Assembly: GCA_021325365.1 (NCBI GenBank)
Contig: JAJPHF010000018.1
Location: forward strand, 1-53,689
Direction: 5' to 3'
Source: Pseudomonadota bacterium
Lineage (GTDB): Bacteria; Chloroflexota; UBA6077; JAJPHF01
Length of the DNA: 53,689 nt
The position numbers and the translations under genes are program-made. The notes beneath the pieces are model-generated. The model searched no databases. It saw only the letters and a list, made by a program, of their open reading frames with translations, and was not told where the DNA came from. The first letter of the stretch is position 1. Each line of letters opens with the position of its first letter. Shown here piece by piece: positions 29,946 to 47,775 of the stretch.

Positions 29946-30878
29946 ATGATGCGGCGTACAGACAGAATCGTTGTGACTGGCGGGGCTGGCTTCATCGGCA
30001 GCCACCTGGTCGATCGCTTGCTCGCAGAGAGCTGCGCCGAGATCGTGGTCCTCGACGACCTCTCCACCGGACTGCTGGCGAATCTGGCTCAGCATGATGC
30101 GGAGCGGCGTCTGGAGGTGGTCGAGGGAGACATCCGCGATCCGGCGGTCGCGGCCGCCGTCCTGCGCGGCGCCGGCGTCATCTATCATCTGGCGGCCCAT
30201 CCCGGGGGGAGCACGCCAGCAGACGCGGAACAGGCGTTCACTACTAACGTGGTGGGCACTTTCAATCTGCTGCGCGCCGCGGTGGCCCAGGAGTTTCCAC
30301 GGGTCGTATTTGCCTCGTCCTGCGCCGTCTATGGCGAACCGATCAGCCTGCCAGTGGAGGAAAGCCATCCGCTGCTCGCCGCGGATTGCTACGGCGCAAG
30401 CAAGGTGGCGGCGGAAGCCTATTGTCGCGCCTTTCGGCGCGTGTTTGGCCTGGATACGGTGGTGCTTCGGCTGGCTCACGTCTATGGCCCGCGCGACCGC
30501 GACACCGTGATCCCGACGTGGATGAGCCAGGCCGCCAGTGGGCAGGACCTGTGCGTCCAGGGGGGCAAACAGGTCCTGGACTTCATCTGGGTGGGCGACG
30601 CGGTCGAGGCGCTCGTTCGGGCGGGGCGTCCCGATGGTCCCCTGCCGGCCATCAACGTCGCGAGTGGCACCGGCACGCGAGCGCACGACGTGGCGCGCCT
30701 TATCCGCCGACTCGTCGGGGGGCAGGGCCGGATCAAGCTCCTGCCAGCACCGCCCAGCGGCGTCACCCGCTTCGTCGGCAGCGTGGAGCGCATGCGCGAG
30801 GTGTTGAAGCTGGAGCCGCCGCTCGATCCGCTGGCTCATCTTCCCAGCCTTGTGCCGACGCCGGTGGGCGCGAGGTGA
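29946..30878 (+). CDS. NAD-dependent sugar-nucleotide epimerase/dehydratase
   Basis: A 310-residue extended short-chain dehydrogenase. GGAGFIG (residues 12-18) binds NAD; the active site is S in FASSCAVYG with Y149 and K153 of YGASK. HVYGPRDRD and FIWVGDAVEALV are standard for UDP-glucose 4-epimerase-like enzymes. It probably interconverts UDP-hexoses feeding the polysaccharide pathway that begins here; UDP-galactose supply for the mutase at 33344 would fit. It is the first gene of a rightward group and couples to the next gene, whose start lies just past its stop. Confidence 0.87.
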   Translation: MMRRTDRIVVTGGAGFIGSHLVDRLLAESCAEIVVLDDLSTGLLANLAQHDAERRLEVVEGDIRDPAVAAAVLRGAGVIYHLAAHPGGSTPADAEQAFTTNVVGTFNLLRAAVAQEFPRVVFASSCAVYGEPISLPVEESHPLLAADCYGASKVAAEAYCRAFRRVFGLDTVVLRLAHVYGPRDRDTVIPTWMSQAASGQDLCVQGGKQVLDFIWVGDAVEALVRAGRPDGPLPAINVASGTGTRAHDVARLIRRLVGGQGRIKLLPAPPSGVTRFVGSVERMREVLKLEPPLDPLAHLPSLVPTPVGAR

Positions 30879-30883
30879 GCCAC

Positions 30884-32074
30884 GTGAAGCCACGAGTCCT
30901 CCTGGTGGTCAACGCGGCCGTGGCGGCCACGGGCCCGCGCCCGGCTGGCCCCCGCAAAGACTACGATGCTCTGGCCGAGCGGCTTGGCGCCGACATTCTG
31001 GATCGTGGTGCCGTGACGCGACGGCCGCTCACCCGGCTCGCCGCCCGTGCTCTCGGCAGCCCGGTTGTGCAGGCGTGGCTGGCGTTTCGCCGCTGTCACC
31101 GCTACGACGTGGTGGTTACGGACGGGGAGGGAAGCGGCATTCCGCTGGCGCTCTTGCTCAAGCTCGCCGGCGCCCGCTGCCCACACGTCACGATCGGGCA
31201 TCGCCTCTCGACGGCCAAGAAGCGCCCCTTCTTTCGCTGGCTGCGCGTCCACAGTCACTTCACACGCGTCGTTCTGCACTCGGTGCGCCAGCGTGACACG
31301 GCAATCCGCGAGCTTGGCATTCCCCCGGAGCAGTTGGCGCTGGTGCCGTACCAGGTGGACGCGGACTTCTGGCGGCCGCAGCCCGTGGCGGAGGAGCGCT
31401 TGGTGTGCAGCGCCGGGCTGGAGCACCGCGATTACCCGACGCTGTTCCGGGCCGTCGAAGAGTTGGACGTGCGGGTGGTGATCGGTGCGGCGAGCCAATG
31501 GTCGCATCAGCGCAATACCGCTGCCACGGCCACGCGCCCGGCGAACGTCGAGGTTGGCTCCTTTGATTATGTTGCCTTACGTGATCTCTACGCCCGCGCG
31601 GCGATCGTCGTGGTGCCACTGGCCGATGTGGATTTCCAGGCGGGAGTGACGACGATCTTGGAAGCGATGGCGATGGGCAAGCCAGTGGTGGTCACTCATA
31701 CCGATGGCCAGACCGATGTGGTCGAGGACCGCCGTACCATCACGCGTGGCACCCCGTCGCGGCCGCGGCCGGTGAGCCTGCTGCAGATGTTGGCGGCCAC
31801 GAGCGGCGTGGAGCTGGCGCCCAACGGCTTCTACGTGCCGCCCGACGACCCGGCGGCCATCCGCCGCGCCATCGTCTACCTGTTGGACCATCCGGCGGAG
31901 CGAGCGCGTCTGGGCGCAGCCGGCCGGCGGGCGGTCGAAGAGCTGCTCACGCTCGACCACTTCGTCGAGCATTTCCGCCGACTCATCCACGCGGCCCACA
32001 ACGCGGGGGCGACCGTCAATAGGGCGTCGCGCCGCGGCGAGCCTCTCGACGCCGGCTACTCGCAATCCGCGTGA
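30884..32074 (+). CDS. Glycosyltransferase, GT4-like
   Basis: A 396-residue GT-B-type transferase. The C-terminal nucleotide-sugar domain shows the E-x7-E type segment in DVDFQAGVTTILEAMAMGKPVV, preceded by AAIVVVPLADV and followed by GFYVPPDDPAAIRRAI. The N-terminal half has the VVVTDGEGSGIPLALLLKL acceptor-domain pattern. GTG 30884 is favoured because GAGGTGA, a perfect anti-16S match, lies five bases before it; GTG 30875 overlapping the epimerase stop is the alternative. It should add one sugar to the lipid-linked repeat unit at the inner face of the membrane. Confidence 0.83.
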   Translation: MKPRVLLVVNAAVAATGPRPAGPRKDYDALAERLGADILDRGAVTRRPLTRLAARALGSPVVQAWLAFRRCHRYDVVVTDGEGSGIPLALLLKLAGARCPHVTIGHRLSTAKKRPFFRWLRVHSHFTRVVLHSVRQRDTAIRELGIPPEQLALVPYQVDADFWRPQPVAEERLVCSAGLEHRDYPTLFRAVEELDVRVVIGAASQWSHQRNTAATATRPANVEVGSFDYVALRDLYARAAIVVVPLADVDFQAGVTTILEAMAMGKPVVVTHTDGQTDVVEDRRTITRGTPSRPRPVSLLQMLAATSGVELAPNGFYVPPDDPAAIRRAIVYLLDHPAERARLGAAGRRAVEELLTLDHFVEHFRRLIHAAHNAGATVNRASRRGEPLDAGYSQSA

Positions 32075-32087
32075 GAAGGTCGAGGTC

Positions 32088-33344
32088 ATGCTGCAATCAC
32101 TGCTCTCCAATCTCTTGACGCTGTTCGCCGCCGGGCTGTTCGTCCTCACCGCCTACCTGCTCGCGCTTACGGCCGCGGCTTTCAGCCCGCGGCGGGCGCC
32201 GCGGGCGGCGGGCGCGGCGCCGCGGCGCTTCGCGGTGCTCGTCCCGGCGCACAACGAGGAAGCGCTCATCGGGCGGCTGCTCACCAACCTGCGGCAGCTC
32301 GACTACCCCGCGCACCTGTACGACGTGTACGTTGTCGCGGACAACTGCCAGGATACGACCGCAGCCCAGGCCCGAGCGCTGGGCGCCCACGTTTACGAAC
32401 GCTTCGACCTAGCGCATCAGGCGAAGGGCTATGCCCTCCGCTGGCTGCTAGAGCGGATTCGCGAAGACGGCCCCCCTTACGACGCGGTGGTGGTGCTAGA
32501 CGCCGACTCGGTGGTGGCGCCCAATCTCTTGCGTAGCATGGACGCGCGGCTGGCCGGCGGTAGCCAGGTGATCCAGGCCTATTACTCCGTATTGAACGTG
32601 GGCGATTCGTCGGTAACCGCGCTTCGGTACACTGCCCTGGCGGCGATTCACTACCTGCGCCCGCTGGGGCGCGCGAGGCTCCGTTTGTCGTGTGGGCTCA
32701 AGGGCAACGGCATGTGTTTCGCCGCGCCGATTCTGGAACGGTTCGCCTGGCGCTGGTACACGCTCGCCGAGGACGTCGAGTTCCACCTGGCACTCGTGCG
32801 GGCGGGCGTGCGCGTGGATTTTGCGCCCGAGACCCAGGTGCTGGCCGACATGCCTGTCTCCTACGCGCAGGCGGCTAGCCAGAATACCCGCTGGGAGCGG
32901 GGGCGCCTGCAGTTGTTGCGGCGGCACGTGCCGGGCCTGCTGCTGGACGCCCTGCGCACGCGCAGCGCGATGCGGCTGGACGCCGTGGTCGAGCAGCTCA
33001 TCCCGCCGCTCTCCGTTCCTTTCGTGCTGGGCGGCTTCTGCCTGCTCGGGGGCGGGGTGGTCCATAACGAGCTTGCCGCGACGCTCGGCGGCCTCAGCCT
33101 GTTGGGCCAGGTAGGCTACCTGCTAGCCGGGCTCGTCCTGGTACGAGCGCCGCGCCGTGCCTACGTGGCCCTGCTCTACGCGCCACGCTATGTGATCTGG
33201 AAGGTTAGCTTGTACGGCCGTGCTCTCGTTAGCACCCGGGCTGCCCGTTGGATCCGGACCACACGCTTGCCGGCTGCCGGTGCTGCGCGCGAGGCGCTGC
33301 CGCTCTCCATGCCTTCGAAGGCGCGTATCGAGGGGAACAATTAA
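32088..33344 (+). CDS. Membrane-bound family 2 glycosyltransferase
   Basis: A 418-residue GT2 protein with an N-terminal transmembrane helix (LLTLFAAGLFVLTAYLLAL) and two or more helices after residue 300. The catalytic set of processive-type GT2 enzymes is visible: VLVPAHNEE, VVADNCQD, VVLDADSVV (DxD), the GLKGNGMCF loop, LAEDVEF (catalytic base) and the QNTRWERG acceptor motif of the QxxRW type. It could be a processive synthase or a non-processive cousin; one C-terminal membrane bundle argues for the latter. GAGG precedes the ATG. Its stop overlaps the next start (TAATG). Confidence 0.87.
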   Translation: MLQSLLSNLLTLFAAGLFVLTAYLLALTAAAFSPRRAPRAAGAAPRRFAVLVPAHNEEALIGRLLTNLRQLDYPAHLYDVYVVADNCQDTTAAQARALGAHVYERFDLAHQAKGYALRWLLERIREDGPPYDAVVVLDADSVVAPNLLRSMDARLAGGSQVIQAYYSVLNVGDSSVTALRYTALAAIHYLRPLGRARLRLSCGLKGNGMCFAAPILERFAWRWYTLAEDVEFHLALVRAGVRVDFAPETQVLADMPVSYAQAASQNTRWERGRLQLLRRHVPGLLLDALRTRSAMRLDAVVEQLIPPLSVPFVLGGFCLLGGGVVHNELAATLGGLSLLGQVGYLLAGLVLVRAPRRAYVALLYAPRYVIWKVSLYGRALVSTRAARWIRTTRLPAAGAAREALPLSMPSKARIEGNN

Positions 33345-34528
33345 TGCACGCTACGTTCGACTATCTGATCGTCGGTGCGGGGTTCGCTGGCAGCGTGGTG
33401 GCAGAGCGGCTCGCGTCGCAGGCCGGCCAGCGGGTCTTGCTGGTCGATCGTCGCCCGCACGTCGGTGGTAACGCCTACGACCATTACGATGACGCCGGCG
33501 TGCTCGTGCACAAGTACGGTCCGCACATTTTTCATACCAACTCCGATCGGGTATGGCAGTATCTTTCACAGTTTACTCGCTGGCGGCCCTATGAACACCG
33601 GGTGCTAGCCAGCGTGGATGGCCAGCTCGTGCCCATCCCTATCAATCTGGATACGGTCAACCGGCTGTATGGGCTCAACCTGACGTCGGCTGAGCTGGAG
33701 AGCTGGCTGGCGGCGCGTGCCGAGCCACGCGCCGCGCTCCGGACCTCCGAGGACGTTGTGGTGAGCAAAGTCGGCCGCGAGCTGTATGAGAAGTTCTTTC
33801 GCGGCTACACGCGCAAGCAGTGGGGGCTGGACCCCTCGGAGCTGGATGCGGCAGTGACCGCGCGGGTGCCGACGCGTACGAACCGCGACGACCGCTACTT
33901 CACCGACACGTATCAGGCGATGCCGCTCCATGGGTACACCCGCTTGTTCGAGAACATGCTGGCCCACCCGAACATCAAGGTCATGCTGAACACTGACTAC
34001 CGCGAGATTGCCGGCGTTATCCCGTATCGCGAACTCATATATACCGGTCCGATCGACGAGTATTTCGATTACTGCTACGGTAAGTTGCCATATCGATCGC
34101 TGACGTTCGCGTTTCGGACGTTCGATATTCCGCAATTGCAGCCCGTTGCAGTGGTGAACTACCCGAACGAGCATGAATATACGCGGGCAACGGAGTTCAA
34201 GCATCTGACCGGGCAACAACACTCGCGGACGACTCTCGTCTATGAGTATCCGGGCGCGGACGGGGACCCGTATTATCCCATACCTCGGCCTGAGAACGCT
34301 CAGCTGTATCGGCGTTACAAAGACCGTGCAGATCTAACGCCAGGCGTTCACTTCGTGGGGCGGCTTGCGACGTACAAGTATTACAACATGGATCAAGTAG
34401 TCGCCCAGGCGCTCGCCCTGTTTGATCGCTTGGTCGCTGGCAGGCGCGGCGCCCGAACAGAAGACCTAGCCGGCCACGAAGAGTCGACCGGCAGCCGGCC
34501 CGCGCGGCTGGCCCACGCTCTCGCGTGA
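33344..34528 (+). CDS. glf: UDP-galactopyranose mutase
   Basis: A 394-residue flavoenzyme that converts UDP-galactopyranose to UDP-galactofuranose. The FAD-binding VGAGFAGSVVAERL (G11-x-G13-x2-G16) opens the protein, followed by RRPHVGGNAYD, the YGPHIFHTN motif, FRGYTRKQWG, the substrate-loop RYFTDTYQAMPLHGYT and the end FVGRLATYKYYNMDQVV. All are canonical for Glf. GAGGGGA precedes the ATG, which overlaps the preceding GT2 stop by one base. Its presence says the surface polysaccharide contains galactofuranose, which the epimerase at 29946 may supply through UDP-galactose. Confidence 0.95.
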   Translation: MHATFDYLIVGAGFAGSVVAERLASQAGQRVLLVDRRPHVGGNAYDHYDDAGVLVHKYGPHIFHTNSDRVWQYLSQFTRWRPYEHRVLASVDGQLVPIPINLDTVNRLYGLNLTSAELESWLAARAEPRAALRTSEDVVVSKVGRELYEKFFRGYTRKQWGLDPSELDAAVTARVPTRTNRDDRYFTDTYQAMPLHGYTRLFENMLAHPNIKVMLNTDYREIAGVIPYRELIYTGPIDEYFDYCYGKLPYRSLTFAFRTFDIPQLQPVAVVNYPNEHEYTRATEFKHLTGQQHSRTTLVYEYPGADGDPYYPIPRPENAQLYRRYKDRADLTPGVHFVGRLATYKYYNMDQVVAQALALFDRLVAGRRGARTEDLAGHEESTGSRPARLAHALA

Positions 34529-34618: not shown

Positions 34619-35974
34619 ATGCGAGGGATCAGAGGGCGTCGTATCGCCAACACGCGCTCGTCTCTGCGCGCCAGTCGGCGGCCTGAAGACCCCAGGACGG
34701 CCGGCTGGTTCGGCCTGCCGTCGATCCGTGTGCTGGCTTGTGTTCTGGCGCTTGCTATGCTTGTCGCCGGTAGGCCCGCGCGTGCCGCTCCGCCGGCCGC
34801 CGCCAGCCCGCAGCCGTTCGTCGAGACGTTCGATGGCCGGCCCGATCACCCGCAGCCGTGGCACCCCGACAACTGGGACGTCACTATCCACTCCCGTGAC
34901 CGGGAAACCTTCTACAATTTGGAGCCGATGGACGCGGGGCATAGCGCCCATTGCGGCGCTCCGCCGGCCATGCACCACGTCGACTCGTACGAGGACGCCG
35001 TCTTCCAGTGCAATGACCACGTCATGACGGCGATCAAAGCGGGCGGTTACGGCGTGATCTACTTGACGCCCAACCAGCTAGTCGACTTCAGCGATGGCGA
35101 GGCCGTCATCCGCTTCGACATGTCCACCCTGCGCACCTCGTTCAGGGACTGGATCGATCTGTGGATCACTCCCTACGACGAGGAGCTGCAGCTGCCGCTC
35201 GATCGATGGCTACCCGATCTCAACGGCGAGCCCCGCGATGCCATTCACATCAAGATGAATCAGGTTTTTTCGTCGGGCGGGAACGCCCAGACGGTCTTCG
35301 GGGGGGAGGTGATCCGCGGTTTTGACGTCCAGGACGTGCCCGCCAATGCGGGGACCGGCTACGAGAGCTTCCTTACCCCGAGTGCCACGCGGCGCGACAC
35401 GTTCGAGCTGCACATCTCTCGCACCCATCTGAAATTTGGGATGCCGGCGCACAACTTCTGGTGGATCAACGCCGACATCCGAGACCTCGGCTGGAGCCGC
35501 GGCGTGGTCCAGTTTGGGCACCATTCCTACAATCCGGCCAAGGACTGCACGCCGAGCGGCACGCTCACTTGCACGGCGAATACGTGGCACTGGGACAACG
35601 TGCAGATCTCGCGCGCGCTGCCGTTTACCATGCTGCACGCCGACCGCCGTTACGTCGACCAAAATAGCGGGTCAGCGGTGGTCTTCCCCGCGCCGGCGCC
35701 CGAAAACGCCCATCTGCGCTTCGTTGGCATCGGCAACGTGATCCAGGCGAGCTACGACGACGGAGCGACCTGGCAGGGAGTGGATCTGCAGCAGCAGCTC
35801 CGCTACGGGGATGGCAATTTCCGCTCGTACTGGACGCCCATCCCGGCCGGCACGACGAGCGTGCGCTTTCGGGGCGAAGGCTGGTATGGCGGACCGTGGA
35901 TGGTCCGCGACGTCTCCATCTGGGCGCTCGATCCCGCGATTGGTGCGGCCTGCCCCGGCTGCCCCGCCCCGTGA
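34619..35974 (+). CDS. Secreted beta-rich protein of unrecognised family, paralogue A
   Basis: A 451-residue exported protein; the leader ends near VLALAMLVAGRPARAA after a long basic N-terminus. The body is beta-rich and aromatic, with FQCNDHVMTAIKAGGYGVIY, FDMSTLRTSFRDW, GVVQFGHHSYNPAKDC (from G295) and TWHWDN (322-327). The same motifs in the same order occur in the protein at 37634-39760. The TWHWDNV-type end of a beta sandwich is common in concanavalin-like lectin and glucanase folds, so sugar binding or cleavage is a fair guess, not a finding. The next gene overlaps its stop (GTGA). It sits in the polysaccharide locus directly after glf. Confidence 0.7.
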   Translation: MRGIRGRRIANTRSSLRASRRPEDPRTAGWFGLPSIRVLACVLALAMLVAGRPARAAPPAAASPQPFVETFDGRPDHPQPWHPDNWDVTIHSRDRETFYNLEPMDAGHSAHCGAPPAMHHVDSYEDAVFQCNDHVMTAIKAGGYGVIYLTPNQLVDFSDGEAVIRFDMSTLRTSFRDWIDLWITPYDEELQLPLDRWLPDLNGEPRDAIHIKMNQVFSSGGNAQTVFGGEVIRGFDVQDVPANAGTGYESFLTPSATRRDTFELHISRTHLKFGMPAHNFWWINADIRDLGWSRGVVQFGHHSYNPAKDCTPSGTLTCTANTWHWDNVQISRALPFTMLHADRRYVDQNSGSAVVFPAPAPENAHLRFVGIGNVIQASYDDGATWQGVDLQQQLRYGDGNFRSYWTPIPAGTTSVRFRGEGWYGGPWMVRDVSIWALDPAIGAACPGCPAP

Positions 35975-37326
35975 TCGCGATGCCCGGCACCGTGCGCCGC
36001 GGCTCTGGCTCCTGGGGGCCACTGGGCCTGCTGCTCACTACCGCGGCCTGCGTGTTGCTTGGCACTGTCCTCTTTGCACCGCACGCTCGCCGTGCGGCGT
36101 CAGCGCCCGTCGCGGCCACACTGGGGGAGCTGCCCGTGGGGTGGCCGCGGACCTTGCAGCTGGGCGTCAGCGATGGGCTTAGCACGGGCGCGGCCTTACG
36201 GGCTCGTGCCCCGTTTGGCTTCCGGTATCAGTACCTGGCCGGGGGCGTCAACACCGGCAATGGCTGGGCGACCTGGAATCCGGACGGCAGCTTTGTCACG
36301 AGCTACGTTCAGGAGTCGGTGGAGAATGGGCTCATTCCGATCTTCACCTACTATATGCTTACCCAATCGCGGCCCGGCAGCGCGGCAGGCGAGAGTCAGG
36401 CCGCGTCTGCCAACCTGCAGAATACGGCCACGATGACGGCCTACTACGACGATCTGCGCCTCTTCTTCCAACGCGCCGGTGCGTTCCCAGGCACGCTGAT
36501 CGTGCTGCACGTGGAGCCGGACCTGTGGGGCTTCGCGCAGCAACGCGTGCGGGCCGATCGCGCGGACACGGTGCCGGTCCAGGTCGCTGCGACGGGGCAG
36601 CCTGAGCTGGCGGGGCTGCCCGATGACTTGCGGGGCTTCGCCCAAGGGGTCGGCCGCCTGCGTGACCGGTACGCCCCCAACGTGCTCCTGGGCTACCATC
36701 TGAGCACGTGGGGCACGGGCACCGACTTCGCCTACACCCGGCCGCCGGCGCCGGTGGTTGATGCGCTCGCCGACCGCGCGGCCGCGTACTACGCCTCGCT
36801 CGGCCAGCCGTTCGATCTCGTCTTCGCCGAGTTCAGCGACCGGGACGCGGGCTTCAAGGCGCAGATCTACGGCGATCACGGTGCCTCGTGGTGGCGCCCC
36901 GACGACTTCGACCGCCACGTCCGCTTCCTGGCGCGGTTCGCCGGTACCACGGGGCGGCGCCTCGTTCTGTGGCAGATCCCGTTCGGGAACACGAAGATGC
37001 GGGCGATGAACAATACCTGGGACCACTATCAGGACAACCGGGTGGAATGGCTGCTGGACGACCCGTCGCGGCAGCACCTCCAGGAGTATATCGACGCCGG
37101 GGTGATTGCCCTGCTCTTCGGCCGCGGTGCCGACGGGGCTACCTGCGCCTGCGATGCGGCCGGCGATGGCGTCACTAACCCCGAGCCCATCAACGGCAAC
37201 GACGGCTGGTCGCTCAACGCCGACGACGATGGCGGCTACTTCCAGCAGCAGGCGACCCGGTTCTATGGGGCTCCGCCTGTTCTGTTACCGGGCGAGTCCT
37301 CCGCTTACGAGGCCGGCGGGAGCTAG
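35971..37326 (+). CDS. Secreted TIM-barrel-like putative glycoside hydrolase
   Basis: A 451-residue protein with an N-terminal signal anchor (WGPLGLLLTTAACVLLGTVLFA). The mature part alternates strands and helices: LQLGVSDGLST, GLIPIFTYYMLTQ, GTLIVLHVEPDLWGF, NVLLGYHLSTWG, FDLVFAEFSDRD and RLVLWQIPFGNT. Acidic residues at strand ends (HVEPD and FAEFSDRD) are where clan-A-type glycosidases keep their two catalytic Glu. I cannot assign a family. GTG 35971 overlaps the preceding stop; ATG 35980 is the alternative and neither has a ribosome site, so translation is probably coupled. Lying between paralogues A and B, it may trim or process the exported polysaccharide. Confidence 0.68.
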   Translation: MIAMPGTVRRGSGSWGPLGLLLTTAACVLLGTVLFAPHARRAASAPVAATLGELPVGWPRTLQLGVSDGLSTGAALRARAPFGFRYQYLAGGVNTGNGWATWNPDGSFVTSYVQESVENGLIPIFTYYMLTQSRPGSAAGESQAASANLQNTATMTAYYDDLRLFFQRAGAFPGTLIVLHVEPDLWGFAQQRVRADRADTVPVQVAATGQPELAGLPDDLRGFAQGVGRLRDRYAPNVLLGYHLSTWGTGTDFAYTRPPAPVVDALADRAAAYYASLGQPFDLVFAEFSDRDAGFKAQIYGDHGASWWRPDDFDRHVRFLARFAGTTGRRLVLWQIPFGNTKMRAMNNTWDHYQDNRVEWLLDDPSRQHLQEYIDAGVIALLFGRGADGATCACDAAGDGVTNPEPINGNDGWSLNADDDGGYFQQQATRFYGAPPVLLPGESSAYEAGGS

Positions 37327-37327
37327 A

Positions 37328-37353
37328 CCCGACGGCGTGACGGCGTCGTCGGG
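37328..37353 (+). terminator. Hairpin behind the TIM-barrel gene
   Basis: CCCGACGGCG at 37328-37337 pairs with CGTCGTCGGG at 37344-37353 (one G-T), loop TGACGG, starting right after the TAG stop. No T tract. The following 280 bp to 37633 hold no gene; GAGGAG at 37623-37628 is the ribosome site of the next one. Confidence 0.5.
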
Positions 37354-37633
37354 CGGCTTCGCCCGCCTCCGGGTGGCATGTGCTGGCTGACACGCCGGCT
37401 GTTGCCGGACGGATGAGCCTGCTCCGTCTCTTCCGCCGCGGACCATAACCATGCCGCAACCCGCGCAAGCGCGGATGGGCCATGGCCTGGTGTCACAATC
37501 GGTTAACAGAGCGGACGGCCTTGAGCGGCGACGCTGGCAATTGCTAGCAGCGTCGGGTGGCGATCCGATAGGATAGCCGAGTTGCCCGGACTGGGCCGCC
37601 AGCTCGGAACCAATGTCAAGGCGAGGAGCCTGC

Positions 37634-39760
37634 ATGGGAATCTCTCGCGCTCTGTCGGCGCTTCTCGGCATCCTCTGTATCAGCGTGGGCGCCTGGCTCG
37701 TCGGCCCGGCCGTGCAGGCGCAGACGCCCGCCCAGTCCTACCTCCAGACGTTCGACGGCATGCCTGCCGCGCCCATGGCCTACCGCCCGCCAGGCTGGGA
37801 CGTGCAGATCCAGAGTCGTGACATGCAGACCTGGACGAGCTTGGAACCGATGACCGCGCAGCACGGCCCGGACTGCAGCCCCCCGCCGGCGACGTTTCCG
37901 CTCGGCGGCGACTACCCGAGCCATGTCTTCCAGTGTCACGATCACGTCATGACTGCCATTCAGGCGGGAGGGTACGGCGTCATCTACTTGACCCCGCCCG
38001 CGCTCGCCGATTTCAGTCAAGGCGAGGTGGTCATTCGCTGGGACATGTCCACGCTGCGCACGTCGTACCGTGATTGGACCGACGTGTGGGTAAGCCCGCT
38101 GGGGGATCACCTGGCGCTTCCGCTCGAAAACGACTTCCAGGTGGACCTGGCCGGCGCACCGCGCCGCGCCGTGCACGCGAAGATGGGCCAGTTCTTTAGC
38201 GCCGCGGGGCCTTGGACCTCCTTCGGGATCGAGACGACTCGCGACTTCATCTCCACGAGCCTGCCCAACACGCTCCAAGGCTACGAGACCGTGCTCACGC
38301 CCGACGCTGCGCGCCGCGATACCTTCGAGATGCACTTGAGTCGGACGCACGTCAAGATCGGCATGCCCGCCTACAACCTGTGGTGGACGGACACGGACAT
38401 CCCGGACCTGGGCTGGACGCAAGGCGTGGTCCAGTTCGGGCACCACTCCTACAATCCAGCCAAGGACTGCACGCCGAGCGCCACGCTCGCCTGCACGGCG
38501 GATACGTGGCACTGGGACAACGTGAGCATCAGTCCGGCCGTGCCGATCACGATCACCGCGCTGAGCCCGCGGCAGATTAGCGACCAAGCGCCCGGTGGCT
38601 GGGTACTGCCCAGCCCCGCTCCCGCCGAGAGTTACCTGCAGTTCAGCGCCAACAATGCCCCAAACAACACGCCGCAGATCACGCTCAGCTTCGACGGCGG
38701 CCAGACCTGGCAAACGGTCCAGCCCCAGCCGAGCGGCCTGCCGACAAATGATACGATCGCTGCCCGCAGCTACTGGGTGCCGCTACCGGCGGGCACGACC
38801 GCCGTCCAGGTCCGGGGCCAGGGTGGCTACTGGGGCGGCTCCTGGCAAGCCAAGGACGCGAGTGTCTGGACGGGGTCATTGACGAGCTGCACGCCCCGCC
38901 CCCCGGTTGGGGTGTCCGTCGCAGCGGCTGGAGCCGGCCGGTTAAGCGTCACGGTGAGCGCCCAGAATGCTCCCCAGACGTCGCCCAACTCCGTGCAGAT
39001 GCTCCAGTTTCTTGGCAACGGCGTGCGGATCCAGCTCGACGGGCAGACGTATAGCACGCCGTTCATGGTGAACCTGGCGGCGAGAACCTCGCAGAAGACG
39101 TTCGTTATCCAGCAGCCATCGCCGGGTCAGGCGGTGACCGTGCCGCTGGTGGTTGTCGACGCCTGTGGACCGTGGTCCACGTTTGTAGGCGGCGGCACGT
39201 CGGCAATTGCGAGTGGCGCACCGGGGACGTCCTCGGCGCCCAGTGCCGTGGCGCCCAATGTCGCAGGGACACCGCCGAGCGCGCCGAGCGCTACCCCCAC
39301 GCGTGGGCCTGCGACGGCGACGCCCACGCCCCTGACGCACGCGAGCGTGGCCAGCATGTCGGCGCAGGTAGCCACTCCCACTCCGGTGCCGAGCGTCAGC
39401 ACCAGCACGGCGCTCGCGGCCGCTCCCCTTGCGGTGCCCTCGTCGCCGAACGTGTCGGTGCCCACCAGCGTGACCCGTGGACCGAGCGTCCCGAATCCCA
39501 GTGTTGGCATAGCAAGCCCGAGCGTCGTGGCCCCCGCGGGAGGCGCCGGCGCCCCCGCCCGGCCATCGGGCCCCTGGATGCCGCTTCTTGGATCGCCGCC
39601 TGGATTGCCCGCACCGTACCCCCAACAGTGGATGCCGTTCGGCTATCCTGGTCCGCCGCCGGGTTGGCCGCCCGCGTATCCTGGCAATGCTTGGACGGTA
39701 CCGCCCGCCGACCTTCCGCCGGGTGCCCCGCTCGCACCTGACGAGCCGAACGCCCCCTGA
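37634..39760 (+). CDS. Large secreted multidomain protein, paralogue B with CxPRPPVGV domain
   Basis: A 708-residue exported protein (leader LSALLGILCISVGAWL.. ending VQAQ). Residues about 35-415 match paralogue A: FQCHDHVMTAIQAGGYGVIY, WDMSTLRTSYRDW, GVVQFGHHSYNPAKDC (from G264) and TWHWDN. Residues about 419-517 form a second domain bounded by CTPRPPVGV and DACGPWSTFVG, also found in the M23 protein at 21247. The rest is a Ser/Thr/Pro linker with TPTP runs and a Pro/Gly/Tyr-rich tail (PPGWPPAYPG). No sorting tail is present. ATG 37634 has GAGGAG five bases upstream. Probably an extracellular matrix or polysaccharide-binding protein. Confidence 0.72.
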   Translation: MGISRALSALLGILCISVGAWLVGPAVQAQTPAQSYLQTFDGMPAAPMAYRPPGWDVQIQSRDMQTWTSLEPMTAQHGPDCSPPPATFPLGGDYPSHVFQCHDHVMTAIQAGGYGVIYLTPPALADFSQGEVVIRWDMSTLRTSYRDWTDVWVSPLGDHLALPLENDFQVDLAGAPRRAVHAKMGQFFSAAGPWTSFGIETTRDFISTSLPNTLQGYETVLTPDAARRDTFEMHLSRTHVKIGMPAYNLWWTDTDIPDLGWTQGVVQFGHHSYNPAKDCTPSATLACTADTWHWDNVSISPAVPITITALSPRQISDQAPGGWVLPSPAPAESYLQFSANNAPNNTPQITLSFDGGQTWQTVQPQPSGLPTNDTIAARSYWVPLPAGTTAVQVRGQGGYWGGSWQAKDASVWTGSLTSCTPRPPVGVSVAAAGAGRLSVTVSAQNAPQTSPNSVQMLQFLGNGVRIQLDGQTYSTPFMVNLAARTSQKTFVIQQPSPGQAVTVPLVVVDACGPWSTFVGGGTSAIASGAPGTSSAPSAVAPNVAGTPPSAPSATPTRGPATATPTPLTHASVASMSAQVATPTPVPSVSTSTALAAAPLAVPSSPNVSVPTSVTRGPSVPNPSVGIASPSVVAPAGGAGAPARPSGPWMPLLGSPPGLPAPYPQQWMPFGYPGPPPGWPPAYPGNAWTVPPADLPPGAPLAPDEPNAP

Positions 39761-39799: not shown

Positions 39800-40576
39800 T
39801 CAGAAAGGCTTACGTGCTAACGCGTGTAGTCGTACAGCAAGGAGCGCAGTCGCGAAGTGCCGACCTCCCGCCGGTAAGGCGTACTTGGCTACATGCGCCG
39901 CACAGCCCCGTGCCTGTAGGTGCCGAATCCATCCTTGGTGACCATGGACCTCTATCTGGCTGAACCCAACCCGGCGTAGCATACGCCGGAGCGTGTCTGG
40001 TGTAAAGAAGCGAATATGCGGATCACGCCAGGGTTCAGCGACGGAGAGAGCATCTCCAAAAGGATTCCAGACACCGAACAACCCAAGCTCGATACGTCGC
40101 CGGAGATGCGCGGTGTTGGGCGTCGTAGCGATAAGGAAGGCCCCGGGCTTCAGTACACGAAGAATTTCCGCTGCGACCTCGTGAGGGGCGAACAAATGCT
40201 CGAGAACTTCGATGCACACTACCGCGTCGAACGTGTTCTCAGCGAACGGCAGCGGCTGATCGATATGAATGAGGCGTGCGTCTAGGCCTCGGGCTTGGGC
40301 CGTCTGAACACCAACCGCCGATACGTCCACGCCGATGTATCGGCGGCCATTTTCAGTCAGCCATATACCTGAGGTTTGGCCGTCACCGCAACCAAGATCT
40401 AGACAGAGGGCGCCACGCGGGATGAGCTTGTCCATATGGCGCCGGACTGGATCCGGCAGGTCACCATACTGGCCTCTTGCTTCACTGGCACGCAGTTCTA
40501 AGTGCTCCTCATTCCAATAGCCATCATAGTACGTCTTTACAGAGCTTTCTGGTGAGTTTGACAGGATGGAATTCAT
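39800..40576 (-). CDS. SAM-dependent methyltransferase
   Basis: A 258-residue class I methyltransferase. CLDLGCGDGQ is motif I, YIGVDVSAVGV binds the ribose, FDAVVCIEVLEHL is the Methyltransf_11/UbiG-type motif and LRVLKPGAFLIATTPN the post-motif. A C-terminal VGFSQIEVHGHQG segment completes the fold. It probably methylates a sugar or lipid-linked intermediate in the polysaccharide pathway. GGAG lies nine bases before the ATG. The gene and its upstream region are visibly less GC-rich than neighbours, suggesting acquisition from another source. It converges with paralogue B. Confidence 0.83.
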   Translation of the reverse strand: MNSILSNSPESSVKTYYDGYWNEEHLELRASEARGQYGDLPDPVRRHMDKLIPRGALCLDLGCGDGQTSGIWLTENGRRYIGVDVSAVGVQTAQARGLDARLIHIDQPLPFAENTFDAVVCIEVLEHLFAPHEVAAEILRVLKPGAFLIATTPNTAHLRRRIELGLFGVWNPFGDALSVAEPWRDPHIRFFTPDTLRRMLRRVGFSQIEVHGHQGWIRHLQARGCAAHVAKYALPAGGRHFATALLAVRLHALARKPF

Positions 40577-40778
40577 TGGATATATCTCCTTTGAACCGAA
40601 CCTTCGTATTGCTGAATCTCTCTTGACTCGTTGCCTGACACTGAACTCGCCATGTGCAGCATGGGCTACGACATTTCGTGCCGTAGGCACACCACAGCCG
40701 GGAGCGAGAACGTATTGGTGGGAATAGGAGGCTGACCACCTGCGCACTGGGCGGGAATGAGAACATCATCGATCTGCA

Positions 40779-41957
40779 CTAAGCAGCCGACGGTGCTGCT
40801 ACATTGTGTAATCTTGCATCCGCTGCTATACGTTCCAGGATCATGGTGGCCTTGGTCCCAGCTATCTCGGGGGTGAAGGTAGACTCCACTCGTTGACGGG
40901 CGGATTGTCCTAGCGTGCGGCGCAACCGGTGATCCCGGAGCAGGGCGTGCATAGCTTCGGCTAGCGCGGCAGTATCGCCCGGCGGAGCGAGCAGGCCGGC
41001 TTCGCCATCCGGTATGATCTCGGGAATTCCGCCACTGTGGAATGCAACTACCGGAAGTCCCGCGGCGGCTGCCTCGAGTACGGCTAGCGGGCACGGATCA
41101 TCGTAGGAAGGGTGGACGAAAACATCAAAGCTATTGAGCAAGCGTGGGATATCCGAGCGCCGCCCTAAGAAGTGTATCTGGCTACTCACGGACGTCTGTT
41201 GAGCCTGCATCCTTAGGGCGTGGGCGAGTTGCCCGTCGCCCACGATAACCAAATGGGCATCGACATGGCGGTGTGCCACCTTCGCGAACGCCTGGATCGT
41301 TTCACTGTGTCCCTTATAAGGGTCTAGACGTGCGACGAAGCCCAGCACCTGGGCGTCGGGCGCCAGACCTAGCTCCATGCGAACATCGATGGAAGAAGCT
41401 CGTGCGGCCGAGAGAGGCGGCATCGCGTTATGGATCGTCGTTACGCGAGCTGGAGGAATTCCAAAATCGATGGCCTGCTGGCGAATGAAGTCGCTCACCG
41501 TAATTACATGTTCGCAGGTCCGGAGGCGGGAAAGCGTTGCTGGCCGGAGCCACCAGCCGATGTTGTAATGAAGGTGGATGATCTGCGGTTTCTTCAGGAG
41601 TGTTGCGAGATAAGTTGTCGCGGAGCAGTCCCAGATCTGCTGATTTGAGATGAGCACATCGGGGTCATAGCGTCTTGCTGCTTGGTAGAGCGCGGGTAGC
41701 CGCAGCCGGAAGCGGGCACGCGCCACGAGCTTTCCGGGGATTGAGCGTAACCCGGAGGTGTGGGGGCGCCAGCCCATATCGAAGCCCGCCACGTCAGTAC
41801 GAGCCATCTGCCTGAACTGGGCGGGGCTGACTGTATCCCCGGTCCATTCATGATGAAGTACGAGGGCGTCGCCATGAGAGCGATGTGCGAGCAGCGTTGC
41901 GAGGACGCGGGCTTCTGAGGAAAAGCCATTCGCGATCTGGATAGCAAGTATCTTCAT
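40779..41957 (-). CDS. Glycosyltransferase family 4
   Basis: A 392-residue GT-B transferase. The C-terminal domain is classical GT4: LGFVARLDPYKGHSETIQAF, LVIVGDGQLAHALRMQA, IHFLGRRSDIPRLLNSFDVFVHPS and the E-x7-E segment in CPLAVLEAAAAGLPVVAFHSGGIPE. The acceptor domain has IANGFSSEARVLATLLA and LLKKPQIIHLHYNIGWW. It adds a sugar to the repeat unit on the cytoplasmic side. GGGGGTG lies before the ATG. It shares the lower GC content of the methyltransferase gene; about 200 bp of noncoding DNA separates the two. Confidence 0.87.
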   Translation of the reverse strand: MKILAIQIANGFSSEARVLATLLAHRSHGDALVLHHEWTGDTVSPAQFRQMARTDVAGFDMGWRPHTSGLRSIPGKLVARARFRLRLPALYQAARRYDPDVLISNQQIWDCSATTYLATLLKKPQIIHLHYNIGWWLRPATLSRLRTCEHVITVSDFIRQQAIDFGIPPARVTTIHNAMPPLSAARASSIDVRMELGLAPDAQVLGFVARLDPYKGHSETIQAFAKVAHRHVDAHLVIVGDGQLAHALRMQAQQTSVSSQIHFLGRRSDIPRLLNSFDVFVHPSYDDPCPLAVLEAAAAGLPVVAFHSGGIPEIIPDGEAGLLAPPGDTAALAEAMHALLRDHRLRRTLGQSARQRVESTFTPEIAGTKATMILERIAADARLHNVAAPSAA

Positions 41958-42362
41958 TGGCACCCCCTGGTGCTCGGCCCAGCCTTGGTAGTGTGACGTG
42001 TACTCGGGTGCTGCATTGGCGCTTGCGTAGGGGGGCAATTCGGGCCGAGGTCGGCGGATCGGGAATGGGCCCGAGGTGGGAGCCCAACAGAGTGAGAATG
42101 AGGAGAGATAGCGGCGCCTCCGGAAGCAGTCCGCCGAGTCGCGGGACTCGTGAGAGGTCGACGACGCTCAGATGAGAGCGAGGCGAGAATGTCGTATGCA
42201 TATGGACGGCGAGTGGGGCGGGAGCACCCGGTCGACGTCCGCAATGATTGGCTCGGCGGGCGTCGGGTCAAGGCGATGGTGTGCCAGCCCATGGGCGGCC
42301 CGTCGGCTCGTAGCGTGTCGCTATAGCGTGTGGTGGCTGGTGTGCTCGCCAACGTACGCTTC
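41958..42362. other. Intergenic region inside the leftward polysaccharide genes
   Basis: About 400 bp between two leftward glycosyltransferase genes. I see no gene, strong hairpin or promoter in it. Frames covering it overlap known genes in other frames and lack ribosome sites. Its length within a packed gene cluster could mark a junction or the remains of a lost gene. Confidence 0.4.
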
Positions 42363-43547
42363 TCACCCACTGCGGGAGCGCCCGGCGGGAGCGACCGCCG
42401 GGCGCGCGGCGGCTGGCGGGGCGCTGGTCGACCTGAGCCGGCCGGCTGCGGGGCCGGCCGCGCGCTGCACACAGGCCACGAGCTGGCCGGCGTTCCGCTC
42501 GGCGTCGAACAGCCGCTCCGCGCGCGCGCGGCCGTAAGCACCCATCGTCCGTCGGCCGACCTCGTCGGCTAGCAGGCGGTCCAGCGCGGCTGCCAGCGCC
42601 GGCGGGTCGGCCGGGGGGATCAACAGCCCCGTGTGCTCGTCCGCTACGATGTCCGTGGCACCCCCTACCCGCGTGGCGACCACCGGCAGGCCGGCGGCCA
42701 TCGCCTCGACCGAGGCGATGCCGAAACACTCTCCGAGGCTGGGCAGCACGAACACGTCGGCCTGCTGGAACAGGTTCCGCGCCACGGGGCTGTTGCCCAC
42801 GACGTTGTGGTGCACGCGGATGCCCGGCTCGGCGGCGACCGCGGTGCGGGTTACCAGGTCGAGTTCGCAGCGACCGCGGCCGTGCGCGCGGAACCAGTCG
42901 AGTAGGAGCCGCCCGCCCTTGCGCTCGAAGTCGCCGCCCACGAACAGCACGCGCGGCAGTCCGCGTCGGCCCTCGCGCGCGGGCGGCGGTCCCCAGAAAG
43001 CGAGATCGACGCCGGGCGGGATGACGTGGATCTTCGCCGCGGGCACCCCGTACTCGTCTATCAGCGAGTCACGCACCCACGTGCTCCACACGACGATCTG
43101 CTGTGCTAAGGCGAAGGTGCGCCGATTGATCCAGTGCTTCAGGCGCGCGACCGGGGTGTCGCCGTCCGGGGTATGGTCGTAGTAGGCGCCCAGGCGATCG
43201 TACTGCGCCGGGGTCACGTCCAGGCTCAGCACGGTCGGCACGCGGGCCAGGTAGTCCCACTGGAAGACGGCCGGCTTCTGCGTGTGGAAGAGCAGGGCGT
43301 CGAGCGGGCGTCGACGCAGGCCGTCGCGGACCTGCAGGAAGCCGCGCAGGGTGCCGCGGACCGAACGGGGGAGCGCCGTCAGCCGTTCGAGGCGGCCGTT
43401 ACCCGCATAGGTCACTTCCAGCCAGTGGGCATCCACCCGCTCGTCCCGCTCCAGCACGCGGCGCAGCGTGTGGTAGTGCGTCACGTGCCCCAGCACCTGC
43501 TCCATCACGAAGCCGACCCGTAGCTGGGCCGCGCGCGCCTGCGTCAT
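42363..43547 (-). CDS. Glycosyltransferase family 4, FVMEQxLGHVTH type
   Basis: A 394-residue GT-B transferase that opens with VGFVMEQVLGHVTHYHTL. The C-terminal half has RVLFVGGDFERKGGRLLL, VRVHHNVVGNSPVARNLFQ and ADVFVLPSLGECFGIASVEAMAAGLPV with the E-x7-E pair. The N-terminus, DVTPAQYDRLGAYYDH and RDSLIDEYGV segments match the transferase at 52251, so the two are paralogues. Its ATG overlaps the upstream GT2 stop as ATGA, with GGGGAG in front. A long Ala/Pro/Arg tail after residue 360 is unusual and may be unstructured. Confidence 0.86.
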   Translation of the reverse strand: MTQARAAQLRVGFVMEQVLGHVTHYHTLRRVLERDERVDAHWLEVTYAGNGRLERLTALPRSVRGTLRGFLQVRDGLRRRPLDALLFHTQKPAVFQWDYLARVPTVLSLDVTPAQYDRLGAYYDHTPDGDTPVARLKHWINRRTFALAQQIVVWSTWVRDSLIDEYGVPAAKIHVIPPGVDLAFWGPPPAREGRRGLPRVLFVGGDFERKGGRLLLDWFRAHGRGRCELDLVTRTAVAAEPGIRVHHNVVGNSPVARNLFQQADVFVLPSLGECFGIASVEAMAAGLPVVATRVGGATDIVADEHTGLLIPPADPPALAAALDRLLADEVGRRTMGAYGRARAERLFDAERNAGQLVACVQRAAGPAAGRLRSTSAPPAAARPAVAPAGRSRSG

Positions 43548-44527
43548 GGCCGGGCTCCCCGGGCAATCGAGCGCCACAGACGCGCGGCGCTGCCCAGCTC
43601 GTCGGCGACGCCCTGCCAGTAGAGCACGCTGAAGATGCCGCTCATCGCCAGCGAGGCGGGGCGGTGGGCGCCTAGCGTGTCGGCCAGGCGAGCCGCTCCG
43701 CCGAGCGCGAGCACCGCGGTGCGCACGAGCCACTGGCGGCCGACGCACCACCGTGTGAGCCACCGGGTCAGGCGATGGCGGGCGTGGAACTCGCGGAACG
43801 CCGCGCGCAGCGCCTCGTGGCCCTTGCGCGCCATCTCGACGTCATAGCGCCCGTACTGATACGGCGTGCGGCACCAGCTCACGAAGGTGCGCGTCGGGTA
43901 ATGCACCACTCGGGCCTCGCCGTGGAAGGCGAAGCGCGCGCCGCGGTCGCGCAGGCGATAGCCCAGCTCGACGTCCTCCGCCCGCTTGAAGCTCGGGTCA
44001 AACCCGCCGGCGGCGAGGAAGCGCTCGCGTCGCAGCGAGGCGTTGGCGGTGAAGAACTGGCGGGGCGTACACGCGTACTTTCCGGCCAGCATCGCCTCGT
44101 ACTGGGCCACGAGCTTCGCTTCCTCCCAGCGAATCCAGGCCGGGCGCGACCACCCGTCGGGTGGGAGCATCGGGCCTATCACCACCAGGTCGTCCTGCCC
44201 GGCCTGGGCCGCGACGTGCGCGGCGACCAGGTCCGGCGCCGGCGCCACGTCGTCGTCGAGGAAGAGGATCAGCTCGCCGCGCGCCTGCTCGACGCCCAGA
44301 TTGCGCGCCCGAGCCGGGCCGCCATGTGCCTGCTGGGCGATCCGCAGCGCATAGGGCAGCGTGAGCTGCTGTACCCGCTCTAGCGTGCCGTCGGTCGAGC
44401 CGTCGTCGACCACGACGACCTCGAAACCGCTGGCCGGGTACGTCTGGTCGGCCAGCGCGTTCAGCAGCGTGCAGAGACTGTCACGCCGATTGAACGTCGG
44501 GACGACGATGCTGACGAGCGGCTGCAC
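43544..44527 (-). CDS. Glycosyltransferase family 2
   Basis: A 327-residue GT-A transferase. VSIVVPTFNRRDSL, VVVVDDGSTDGTLERV, GGPARARNLGVEQARGELI and LFLDDDVAPAPDLV (DxD-type metal site) are standard. ANASLRRERFLAAGGFD and KRAEDVELGYRL complete the acceptor region. A hydrophobic end may associate with the membrane. GTG 44527 directly precedes the first strand and has AAGGGA upstream; the frame stays open upstream, but those residues resemble no GT2. Overlaps the next gene by ATGA, so they are translated together. Confidence 0.84.
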   Translation of the reverse strand: MQPLVSIVVPTFNRRDSLCTLLNALADQTYPASGFEVVVVDDGSTDGTLERVQQLTLPYALRIAQQAHGGPARARNLGVEQARGELILFLDDDVAPAPDLVAAHVAAQAGQDDLVVIGPMLPPDGWSRPAWIRWEEAKLVAQYEAMLAGKYACTPRQFFTANASLRRERFLAAGGFDPSFKRAEDVELGYRLRDRGARFAFHGEARVVHYPTRTFVSWCRTPYQYGRYDVEMARKGHEALRAAFREFHARHRLTRWLTRWCVGRQWLVRTAVLALGGAARLADTLGAHRPASLAMSGIFSVLYWQGVADELGSAARLWRSIARGARP

Positions 44528-44690
44528 GGCTATGGCGTTCCCTTCGGCTAGCGGCGTCGGCTTGCCGCACTTGAGACACTGGAAGTGTGACGGTTGGTGT
44601 TTGCGGTGTCCGTAGGGTGGCGGTTGAGAATCAGTTGAGCCCGCCGTGGTGCGAGGCGCGGGCGGAGTGCCGCCTACGGGGAGGGCTGCG

Positions 44691-46286
44691 TCAGTCGACG
44701 GAGTGACGCCCAAGGGCGCCGCGCGTAAGCCGCCGCGCTGCACCCAGATCGTCTACAGTCACGACGCCGAGCGCTAGCAGCGCGGACAGATACGCGAGTC
44801 CGCCACCGATTACCGCGAGCGGCAGGGACAGCGTTAAGATCGCGGCCGCAACTCCCACGAGGCAGACCGCGGCCAGCCCGATGCGCGCGCTAACGCCCAG
44901 GAATGCGCGCTCGAGCAGACCACTCGGCATCAACACCAATGCCCCGGTAAGCATCAGCAGCTCGGTGAGCACGGTCACGACGGCCGCGCCGATGGCACCA
45001 TTGCCGGCCTGGTGCTCGAAGTACGGGATGCAGAGCAGATTGAGCGCCGGGTTGAAGACGGCGGCGACAATGCCCACGATCAGCCACTTGTGCTCGCGGC
45101 CGAGCGCGATCAGCGCGGTACCCAGGACCATATCGACGGCAACCAACGGGATGTGAAGCGCCAGGATCTGGAGTAGTGGCACGGCGTGCTCGAATGGCGG
45201 GGGCCAGCCCAGGAGGCCGGGAATGGCGGGGGCGGTGGCGACGATAAGCCCACAGAGCGGGACGGTCAGCACCAGCGCCACCACCAGGCTCTGCCGGAGC
45301 GTCTGACGGGCCAAGGGGACGTCGCCGGCGCAGCGTGCGAGCACGGGCAAGAGCGGCGTTATGATTAGCGTTGGGATGAACCCCGGAATACTGATGATAC
45401 GGTAAGCCGCGGCGTACCAGCCGACCACGGCGTCCTGGGCCATGGCGCCCAAGAGCAGCTTGTCGACCTCGCCGTAGACCTGCAGAGCGACGTTCCACCC
45501 CAGGAAGGGGAGCCCGCAGCGCGCGAGGTCGAGTAGCAGTGACGGGGCAAGAGCCGCTCGGGCGAGCCGGAAGCCCGCGGAGCGCCAGCTGGCGAGCGTG
45601 ACCACTCCCGACGCAACCAGCCCGGCGACCATATAGGCGATGAGGTCCCCGCCCAATACGAGCACGGCGATGCCGGCAGCCGTGCTTCCCGTGGCCGCGG
45701 CGGCATTGAGCCAGGCGAAGCGCGCATGCCGCTCCTGGCCGACGAAGAGCGAAAATAGGACCGTCTGCGGCGCGCCGACGATCATGCCGAGCAGCGCGAT
45801 GGTGAGCGGCGCCGCCTGCGGCGCGCGGTGCCCCAAGAGCGCCGTCGCCGCGAGCAGCAGGGCCGCCACCGCGAATGCGCTGACGAGTGACAGCGCCAGC
45901 GCCGTCGAGCCCAGCCCCGCCACGCGGTCGGGCTGGCGGGCGATCTGGCGCCGCAGGTAGTTCGGTACCCCGAGCGACGCCACCAGGCCCGCGAGATTGG
46001 CTAGCGTGATGACGACCGCATAGTGCCCGAGCCCCTCGTCGCCGAGATAGCGGGGCACCAGCACGGCCGCGAGCAGGCTCGCCGTCCAAGTGACCGGCTG
46101 GGTGCTGAGGAGAGACAGGCCTCCGCGCACCAAACTGGCCGCCGGACGACGCTGGTCCGTCGCGTCTGGCGTGAACGCCCGCCCGCCGGCGGCCCGGCTG
46201 CCGCGGTCGGCGGTGCGGACAGCCGCTACGACTGCACCATCGTCGGTCACCGTACGTGACCCCCAGTTGCTACCCGAAGAGGCCAT
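44691..46286 (-). CDS. Polysaccharide flippase (Wzx-like)
   Basis: A 531-residue integral membrane protein with about 12-14 hydrophobic segments after a charged N-terminus of about 50 residues. ATLVP-type LLAAVLVPRYLGDEGLGHYAVV and the later LQVYGEVDKLLLGAMAQDAVVGWYAAAYRI and LITPLLPVLARCA are signatures of the MOP-superfamily polysaccharide exporters. It would flip undecaprenyl-linked repeat units across the membrane for Wzy. The ATG at 46286 has no strong ribosome site and internal starts are possible. It is separated from the downstream GT2 start by 163 bp. Confidence 0.87.
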   Translation of the reverse strand: MASSGSNWGSRTVTDDGAVVAAVRTADRGSRAAGGRAFTPDATDQRRPAASLVRGGLSLLSTQPVTWTASLLAAVLVPRYLGDEGLGHYAVVITLANLAGLVASLGVPNYLRRQIARQPDRVAGLGSTALALSLVSAFAVAALLLAATALLGHRAPQAAPLTIALLGMIVGAPQTVLFSLFVGQERHARFAWLNAAAATGSTAAGIAVLVLGGDLIAYMVAGLVASGVVTLASWRSAGFRLARAALAPSLLLDLARCGLPFLGWNVALQVYGEVDKLLLGAMAQDAVVGWYAAAYRIISIPGFIPTLIITPLLPVLARCAGDVPLARQTLRQSLVVALVLTVPLCGLIVATAPAIPGLLGWPPPFEHAVPLLQILALHIPLVAVDMVLGTALIALGREHKWLIVGIVAAVFNPALNLLCIPYFEHQAGNGAIGAAVVTVLTELLMLTGALVLMPSGLLERAFLGVSARIGLAAVCLVGVAAAILTLSLPLAVIGGGLAYLSALLALGVVTVDDLGAARRLTRGALGRHSVD

Positions 46287-47038: not shown

Positions 47039-47064
47039 GAATCCAGTAGTCCCGTCCTGCTAGG

Positions 47065-47676: not shown

Positions 47677-47728
47677 GAGGTCTCCAAGATACTTCAAAAC
47701 CTTGATGGTAGTGACTGAGCTGGTTTCC

Positions 47729-47775
47729 GAGGCTAGTGGGTAAGGTTGGCTGGGCCAACCTTACCCATTAGCCTC
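47729..47775 (-). terminator. 22-bp perfect-class hairpin between glycosyltransferase and acyltransferase genes
   Basis: The arms 47729-47750 and 47754-47775 pair over 22 bp with one G-T and loop TGG. On the minus strand it begins 11 bp after the stop of the gene at 47786. Flanking bases show no T tract. A terminator or a strong mRNA stabiliser would fit, and its core TTGGC-N3-GCCAA resembles the cores of the dispersed palindromes. Confidence 0.65.

What the first reader, a model, noticed from the sequence alone, without database searches (positions are those of the whole stretch)
34619..39760. Two paralogous secreted proteins flank a TIM-barrel protein inside a galactofuranose-type polysaccharide locus
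Paralogues A (34619-35974) and B (37634-39760) share ordered motifs over almost 380 residues, including DHVMTAIxAGGYGVIYLTP, STLRTSxRDW, HHSYNPAKDC and TWHWDN. I recognise no named family. The gene between them encodes a secreted barrel-like protein with Glu residues at strand ends. They follow the epimerase, two glycosyltransferases and glf on one strand and interrupt the usual Wzx/Wzy gene set. Inference: a secreted binding plus processing module acting on the exported polymer.
Basis: partly seen in the sequence, partly recalled or inferred. Interest (0 to 1): 0.75.

Follow-up and report, generated by a model that had tools for sequence, protein, structure and literature searches.

The report
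Lectin-fold proteins beside a polysaccharide-export locus
A bacterium, probably a member of the Chloroflexota, carries genes for making and exporting a sugar polymer, and beside them three secreted proteins from two large unnamed families, two shaped like sugar-binding lectins and one shaped like a sugar-cutting enzyme, which most likely hold and trim the cell's own polymer.

Summary
A (34619-35974) and B (37634-39760) are 51% identical over 413 columns (E 4e-138) and flank a third protein, T. None reaches a Pfam or NCBIfam cut-off, yet database hits are many: 1228 for A, at least 2965 for T. The A model (pLDDT 94.5) is a concanavalin-like jelly roll plus a C-terminal beta-sandwich. The T model (pLDDT 85) is a TIM barrel nearest clan GH-A glycosidases, with a near-invariant Glu ending strand 4, an acidic residue ending strand 6, and Gln on strand 7 where that clan has its catalytic Glu. 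A relatives lie with export/glycosyltransferase genes in 18 of 34 loci, against 2 of 20 hand-picked control regions. Some are fused to other carbohydrate-type modules. T is only loosely tied to A and mostly lies outside such loci. The galactofuranose (glf) link is not supported elsewhere, and A-T-B do not interrupt the Wzx/Wzy genes, which run on the opposite strand. Best reading: a secreted binding-plus-trimming module for the exported polymer; a new variant of a known kind (compare PslG, PelA). No activity or binding is shown.

The parts
34619..35974 (+). A: two-domain protein with a signal-peptide-like start; concanavalin-like lectin/GH16-type jelly roll (mature residues 7-279) plus C-terminal beta-sandwich (about 290-381)
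   Evidence: 1228 database hits
35971..37326 (+). T: TIM-barrel protein with a signal-peptide-like start (GTG 35971 or ATG 35980), glycosidase-like; E137 at end of strand 4, acidic residue 242 at end of strand 6, Q290 on strand 7 (numbering from base 36106)
37634..39760 (+). B: paralogue of A (core about 37721-38870) with a further stretch and a long Pro/Thr/Ser-rich tail; P0242 aligns to 98% of it at 64% identity, tail included
29946..30878 (+). NAD-dependent sugar epimerase/dehydratase
30880..32074 (+). glycosyltransferase, GT4 type (listed ORF opens at 30386 inside the epimerase; true start probably near 30880)
   Evidence: start inferred
32088..33344 (+). glycosyltransferase, GT2 type
33344..34528 (+). 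glf, UDP-galactopyranose mutase
   Evidence: PF03275, E 1.5e-79
39800..42038 (-). methyltransferase and GT4 glycosyltransferase at the end of the convergent block nearest B
42363..46286 (-). GT4, GT2 and Wzx-type flippase genes
   Evidence: Wzx model matched below its cut-off
46424..50248 (-). hexapeptide acetyltransferase, GT2 and Wzy-type polymerase genes
   Evidence: below cut-offs
50411..53390 (-). BY-kinase, Wzc-type chain-length protein and GT4 genes
   Evidence: (below cut-offs)

Best explanation
A and B are secreted lectin-fold proteins that bind the polymer exported by the neighbouring Wzx/Wzy machinery outside the cell, and T, co-translated with A, is a secreted TIM-barrel glycosidase that cuts or trims the same polymer. 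A and B, diverged paralogues, would recognise different parts or forms of it. Shown by computation: the paralogy, the folds (predicted models), the conserved acidic residues of T, the overlap or near-overlap of A and T, and the association of A relatives with polysaccharide loci. Inferred: secretion, sugar binding, hydrolysis, and that the substrate is the cell's own polymer.
Against: T relatives mostly do not lie in polysaccharide loci: 1 of 12 close and 2 of 20 distant T loci meet the same criterion, no more than controls. Gln replaces the strand-7 catalytic Glu of clan GH-A in 41 of 42, so T may be inactive or use another mechanism. 16 of 34 A loci show no such context; a Pfam tally of 99 of their neighbours lists 4 sugar transferases (PF02397) and 4 nucleotidyl transferases, but also 4 ABC transporters and much else. 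The A-T-B triple was not seen in any other locus I examined. TM-scores of the Foldseek matches are modest (0.3-0.5). No activity or binding data exist.
Confidence: 0.5

Rival explanations
1. The A/B module is itself an enzyme (a polysaccharide lyase or hydrolase on a jelly-roll scaffold), not a passive binder; its conserved His/Arg/Gln/Tyr set would be the active site.
For: In 54 distinct relatives (39-61% identity) R121 54 of 54, D101 54 of 54, D145 54 of 54, Q243 52 of 53, H246 52 of 53, H247 53 of 53, Y249 52 of 53, K253 53 of 53, H269 52 of 53: strong polar invariance. The fold is shared with GH16 enzymes.
Against: The GH16 ExDxE-type motif is in only 1 of 120 relatives; no enzyme family reached a Pfam cut-off for A or consistently for the 94 members; A is found as an end domain on other proteins. 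Geometry of the conserved residues could not be measured (no coordinates given).
Confidence: 0.25
2. The module forages: it binds and degrades polysaccharides of other organisms and happens to lie beside the capsule genes.
For: T relatives are mostly outside polysaccharide loci, and A modules are joined to DUF6298/Collagen_bind_2 proteins with a sub-threshold apiosidase match; apiosidases act on plant pectin (recalled).
Against: A sits within 2 kb of export, glycosyltransferase or acetyltransferase genes in 20 of 40 loci. Transporters and sugar-use genes expected of a foraging locus were not looked for.
Confidence: 0.2
3. T is a catalytically dead barrel, and A, T and B are structural or adhesive parts of the cell surface layer.
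For: Q290 on strand 7 where clan GH-A has Glu (41 of 42); the lectin domains of the adhesins SasG and Aap are among the tied best matches to A.
Against: Acidic residues at the ends of strands 4 and 6 are kept down to 31% identity, which a dead barrel need not keep.
Confidence: 0.2

Closest known systems
Glycosidases encoded in exopolysaccharide loci: PslG, PelA, PgaB (and the lyase AlgL)
   Same: A TIM-barrel glycosidase-type protein encoded beside polysaccharide genes and acting, by inference, on the polymer made there; glycosidase genes are said to be often found in such loci (PMC9075953, PMC9894940, passages seen; the PgaB paper PMC5933820 seen in a listing only). PgaB 4f9j is also a Foldseek match of T (rank 28, E 4.3e-5)
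   Different: T matches no Pfam family at E up to 1, comes with lectin-fold paralogues, and most T relatives examined are not in such loci
L-type lectins and bacterial lectin-fold adhesins (ERGIC-53, SasG, Aap)
   Different: 6-10% identity, no Pfam lectin match, extra C-terminal beta-sandwich, own set of invariant residues
GH16 glucanases (PtLam laminarinase)
   Different: Catalytic ExDxE-type motif absent in 119 of 120 relatives
Clan GH-A glycosidases (GH53, GH26, GH35, GH5, GH113)
   Same: TIM barrel, best structural matches, Glu-Pro at end of strand 4 like the clan's acid/base (clan rule recalled)
   Different: Gln instead of Glu on strand 7; second acidic residue on strand 6
GH114/GH135/GH166/GH191 endo-galactosaminidases of matrix polysaccharides
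   Same: Barrels with an Asp and a Glu as the catalytic pair, acting on matrix polymers (PMC12054363, passages seen)
   Different: Not among the 50 rows shown; strand positions of their pair not compared here

Membership tests
GH16 | E-x-D-x-(x)-E catalytic motif on a jelly-roll strand | tested here: not met
   Pattern in 1 of 120 A relatives; no GH16 Pfam match
GH16 | Concanavalin-like jelly-roll fold | tested here: met
L-type / legume lectins | Sequence match to a lectin family model | tested here: not met
   No Pfam lectin family at E up to 0.1 for the 94 members
L-type / legume lectins | Jelly-roll fold | tested here: met
L-type / legume lectins | Carbohydrate binding | not testable with these tools
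   Needs purified protein
Clan GH-A glycosidases | (beta/alpha)8 barrel | tested here: met
Clan GH-A glycosidases | Glu acid/base at end of strand 4 | tested here: met
   E137, 42 of 43, followed by P138 42 of 42
Clan GH-A glycosidases | Glu nucleophile at end of strand 7 | tested here: not met
   Q290 in 41 of 42; strand numbering from DSSP of the model, no residue-level superposition
GH114/GH135/GH166/GH191 | Asp/Glu pair in the positions of that group | tested here: inconclusive
   T has acidic residues on strands 4 and 6; no residue-level structural alignment available; group not among the rows shown
CAZy families in general | Match to a CAZy family profile | not tested

The most novel reading that the evidence does not exclude
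Two new carbohydrate-active families: T is a founding glycosidase family on a GH-A-like barrel whose catalytic pair has moved to strands 4 and 6, with a Gln fixed on strand 7, and A/B is a jelly-roll family whose invariant His/Arg/Gln/Tyr cluster is an active site, the two working in sequence on the polymer exported by the same locus.
Probability: 0.2. Interest if true: 0.75.

Novelty: new variant of a known kind. Interest (0 to 1): 0.5.

Why it matters
Placing A at polysaccharide-export loci, and T at an altered glycosidase active site, gives concrete assays for how these bacteria (Kouleothrix and Chloroflexus among them) shape their outer polymer.

Tried and rejected
Tried without result: Pfam and NCBIfam for A, T, B and Pfam for every member of the A and T alignments; the hits to the A core (Mo-co dimer in 32, BNR in 29, Reelin in 19, Tli3 in 11 of 94 members, at E up to 0.1) are weak, best E 0.0011. 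Sequence search of solved structures: nothing convincing for A; the one T profile hit (8zvk, E 1.4e-6) covers profile columns 433-554 of 570, while barrel matches end near columns 441-456, so it is taken as an accessory domain, not the barrel. T in viral contigs: none confirmed. B in plasmids: none. Viral structure library for A: jelly-roll and tail-protein matches with query TM-scores up to 0.39. Promoter/terminator scan: no more than shuffles.

Rejected: galactofuranose link (0 of 40 loci; 1 of 15 A-positive genomes, p 0.54). A and B as a recent tandem copy: the tree of 78 chosen rows puts them in separate starred clades (A with P0002/P0003, B in a clade of 9, 100/99). E242 as a fixed Glu: it is Asp in 27 of 42. 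GH16 membership: motif absent.

Weak points: by eye, 6 longest-contig lengths are shared between the listed 120 A hits and 120 T hits; for one (2955) the two proteins do not fit together on the contig, and some of the others may be chance; only those shared by top-ranked hits (P0002/P0121, P0003/P0122, P0005/P0124) look meaningful, and I could not open those contigs. In some searches at most 4 candidates per genome were scored, so counts are lower bounds; I counted as full-length A only matches with E below 1e-90 (15 of the 41 genomes reported; the other 26 match only a short part of the profile, nearly all the C-terminal sandwich). The 40 A loci were found through two peptide patterns. Control regions were picked by hand from genomes holding A or T. 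The 34 loci include four closely similar Chloroflexus ones and several loci from one genome, so the p values are optimistic. Neighbour genes were recognised by tblastn with the window's own genes, which misses other kinds. The T-neighbour Pfam tally covers 61 ORFs from 11 of the 12 close T loci. Fusion: the apiosidase model itself is below its cut-off in all three proteins; DUF6298 and Collagen_bind_2 are above theirs. Not in print: keyword searches (three of them with no paper at all) listed none whose title is about these families; I opened passages of three papers only, and the library holds only open-licence PMC papers.

Full report
What is there. On the + strand, 29946-39760 encodes an epimerase, a GT4 and a GT2 glycosyltransferase, glf, A, T and B. 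On the - strand, 39800-53390 encodes a methyltransferase, GT4s, GT2s, a Wzx-type flippase, an acetyltransferase, a Wzy-type polymerase, a BY-kinase, a Wzc-type protein and a last GT4 (the NCBIfam matches behind Wzx, Wzy, Wzc and BY-kinase are clear but below those models' cut-offs). The two blocks converge just after B. A and B are paralogues: 51% identity over 413 columns, E 4e-138. T follows A with a GTGA overlap or a 5-nt gap, so the two are very likely co-translated (sequence). All three open with a hydrophobic stretch read by eye as a signal peptide.

Families. None of the three reaches a curated cut-off in Pfam or NCBIfam. In the alignments (94 and 78 members) the A core gives only weak hits, best E 0.0011, and the T barrel of the window none; T relatives often carry extra domains such as Wzt_C (15 of 78 at E up to 0.1). 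Yet phmmer finds 1228 proteins for A, 2965 for T and 536 for B at E up to 1e-3 (for T and B only the best candidates were scored). Where a source gives a name among the 120 listed A and 120 listed T hits it is 'hypothetical protein' in all but one (P0046). In one genome per species, 40 loci encode A relatives; 34 of 40 records are titled as Chloroflexota lineages (Kouleothrix, Chloroflexus, Oscillochloris and uncultured ones), 6 as others, among them Ilumatobacter.

Context. I searched the window's own genes against the loci by tblastn. Of 34 A loci of at least 9 kb (of 40), 18 have two or more glycosyltransferase matches or a Wzx/Wzy/Wzc/BY-kinase match; 2 of 20 control regions do (p 0.0014). 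Of 8 further A loci fetched from the genome survey, 5 do. In 20 of 40 loci such a gene or an acetyltransferase is within 2 kb of A (no control). The nearest genome locus, L003, has A facing a minus-strand run GT2-Wzx-GT4-Wzy-BY-kinase-Wzc-GT4, the shared genes in the window's order, with T about 9 kb away on the same contig. For the 16 loci without this context, the Pfam tally of 99 neighbours lists 4 PF02397 sugar transferases and 4 nucleotidyl transferases, beside 4 ABC transporters and many single families. Pairs of A genes on one contig recur: of 15 A-positive genomes among 400, 4 have two or more full-length copies, and in each of the 4 two copies lie on the same contig, about 1 to 33 kb apart.

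T is different. 1 of 12 close and 2 of 20 distant T loci meet the same context criterion, no better than controls; its neighbours are varied. In 400 genomes, A (full length) is in 15, T in 38, both in 5, p 0.009. Three of the four best T hits (P0121, P0122, P0124) have the same longest-contig length as three of the four best non-self A hits (P0002, P0003, P0005), which suggests that A-T adjacency is kept in close kin, but this is inferred. The nine best non-self B hits share none of these lengths.

Glf. In the same 400 genomes glf is in 20; it meets A in one genome, on another contig; none of the 40 A loci holds it. The window's polymer may contain galactofuranose, but the module is not tied to it.

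Mechanism. The most likely account is a secreted module in which A and B hold the exported polymer and T trims it. The A module is the C-terminal part of P0293, P0298 and P0317, behind DUF6298 and Collagen_bind_2 domains with a sub-threshold apiosidase match, stands before CBM96 in P0275, and is doubled in P0246 and P0247; such arrangements are usual for binding modules of carbohydrate-active enzymes (recalled). Glycosidase genes in exopolysaccharide loci are a known kind: PslG and PelA (PMC9075953, PMC9894940; passages seen). [quoted passage not shown] What differs here is the families, the lectin-fold partners and the altered barrel.

Verdict. Observation confirmed; interpretation partly supported; novelty is a new variant of a known kind. 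Steps shown: paralogy, predicted folds, conserved residues, context of A. Steps inferred: secretion, binding, catalysis, substrate.

Noticed in passing
23072-24682 (-): Protein with an HTTM domain (PF05090, E 1e-6, just over the cut-off), a membrane domain related to vitamin K-dependent carboxylases (recalled).
   Followed up: no
17114-18646 (+) and 18714-19787 (+): A protein with a DUF5940 match (E 5e-49) next to an NMT1-like substrate-binding protein.
   Followed up: no
50411-52254 (-): BY-kinase and chain-length proteins score best against exosortase-associated (XrtA) models, below cut-off; no exosortase was looked for.
   Followed up: no
P0293, P0298, P0317: A-type module behind DUF6298 and Collagen_bind_2 domains, with an apiosidase match below cut-off.
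   Followed up: partly
L104:14017-16392: Two distant A-like stretches (27-29% identity) lie about 3.5 and 5.3 kb from a T gene and beside GT2, GT4 and epimerase genes of the window's kind.
   Followed up: no
37141-37236 (+), residues 346-377 of mature T: Invariant D350, D354 and D373-D375 loop, possibly a calcium site, partly in a low-confidence stretch of the model.
   Followed up: partly
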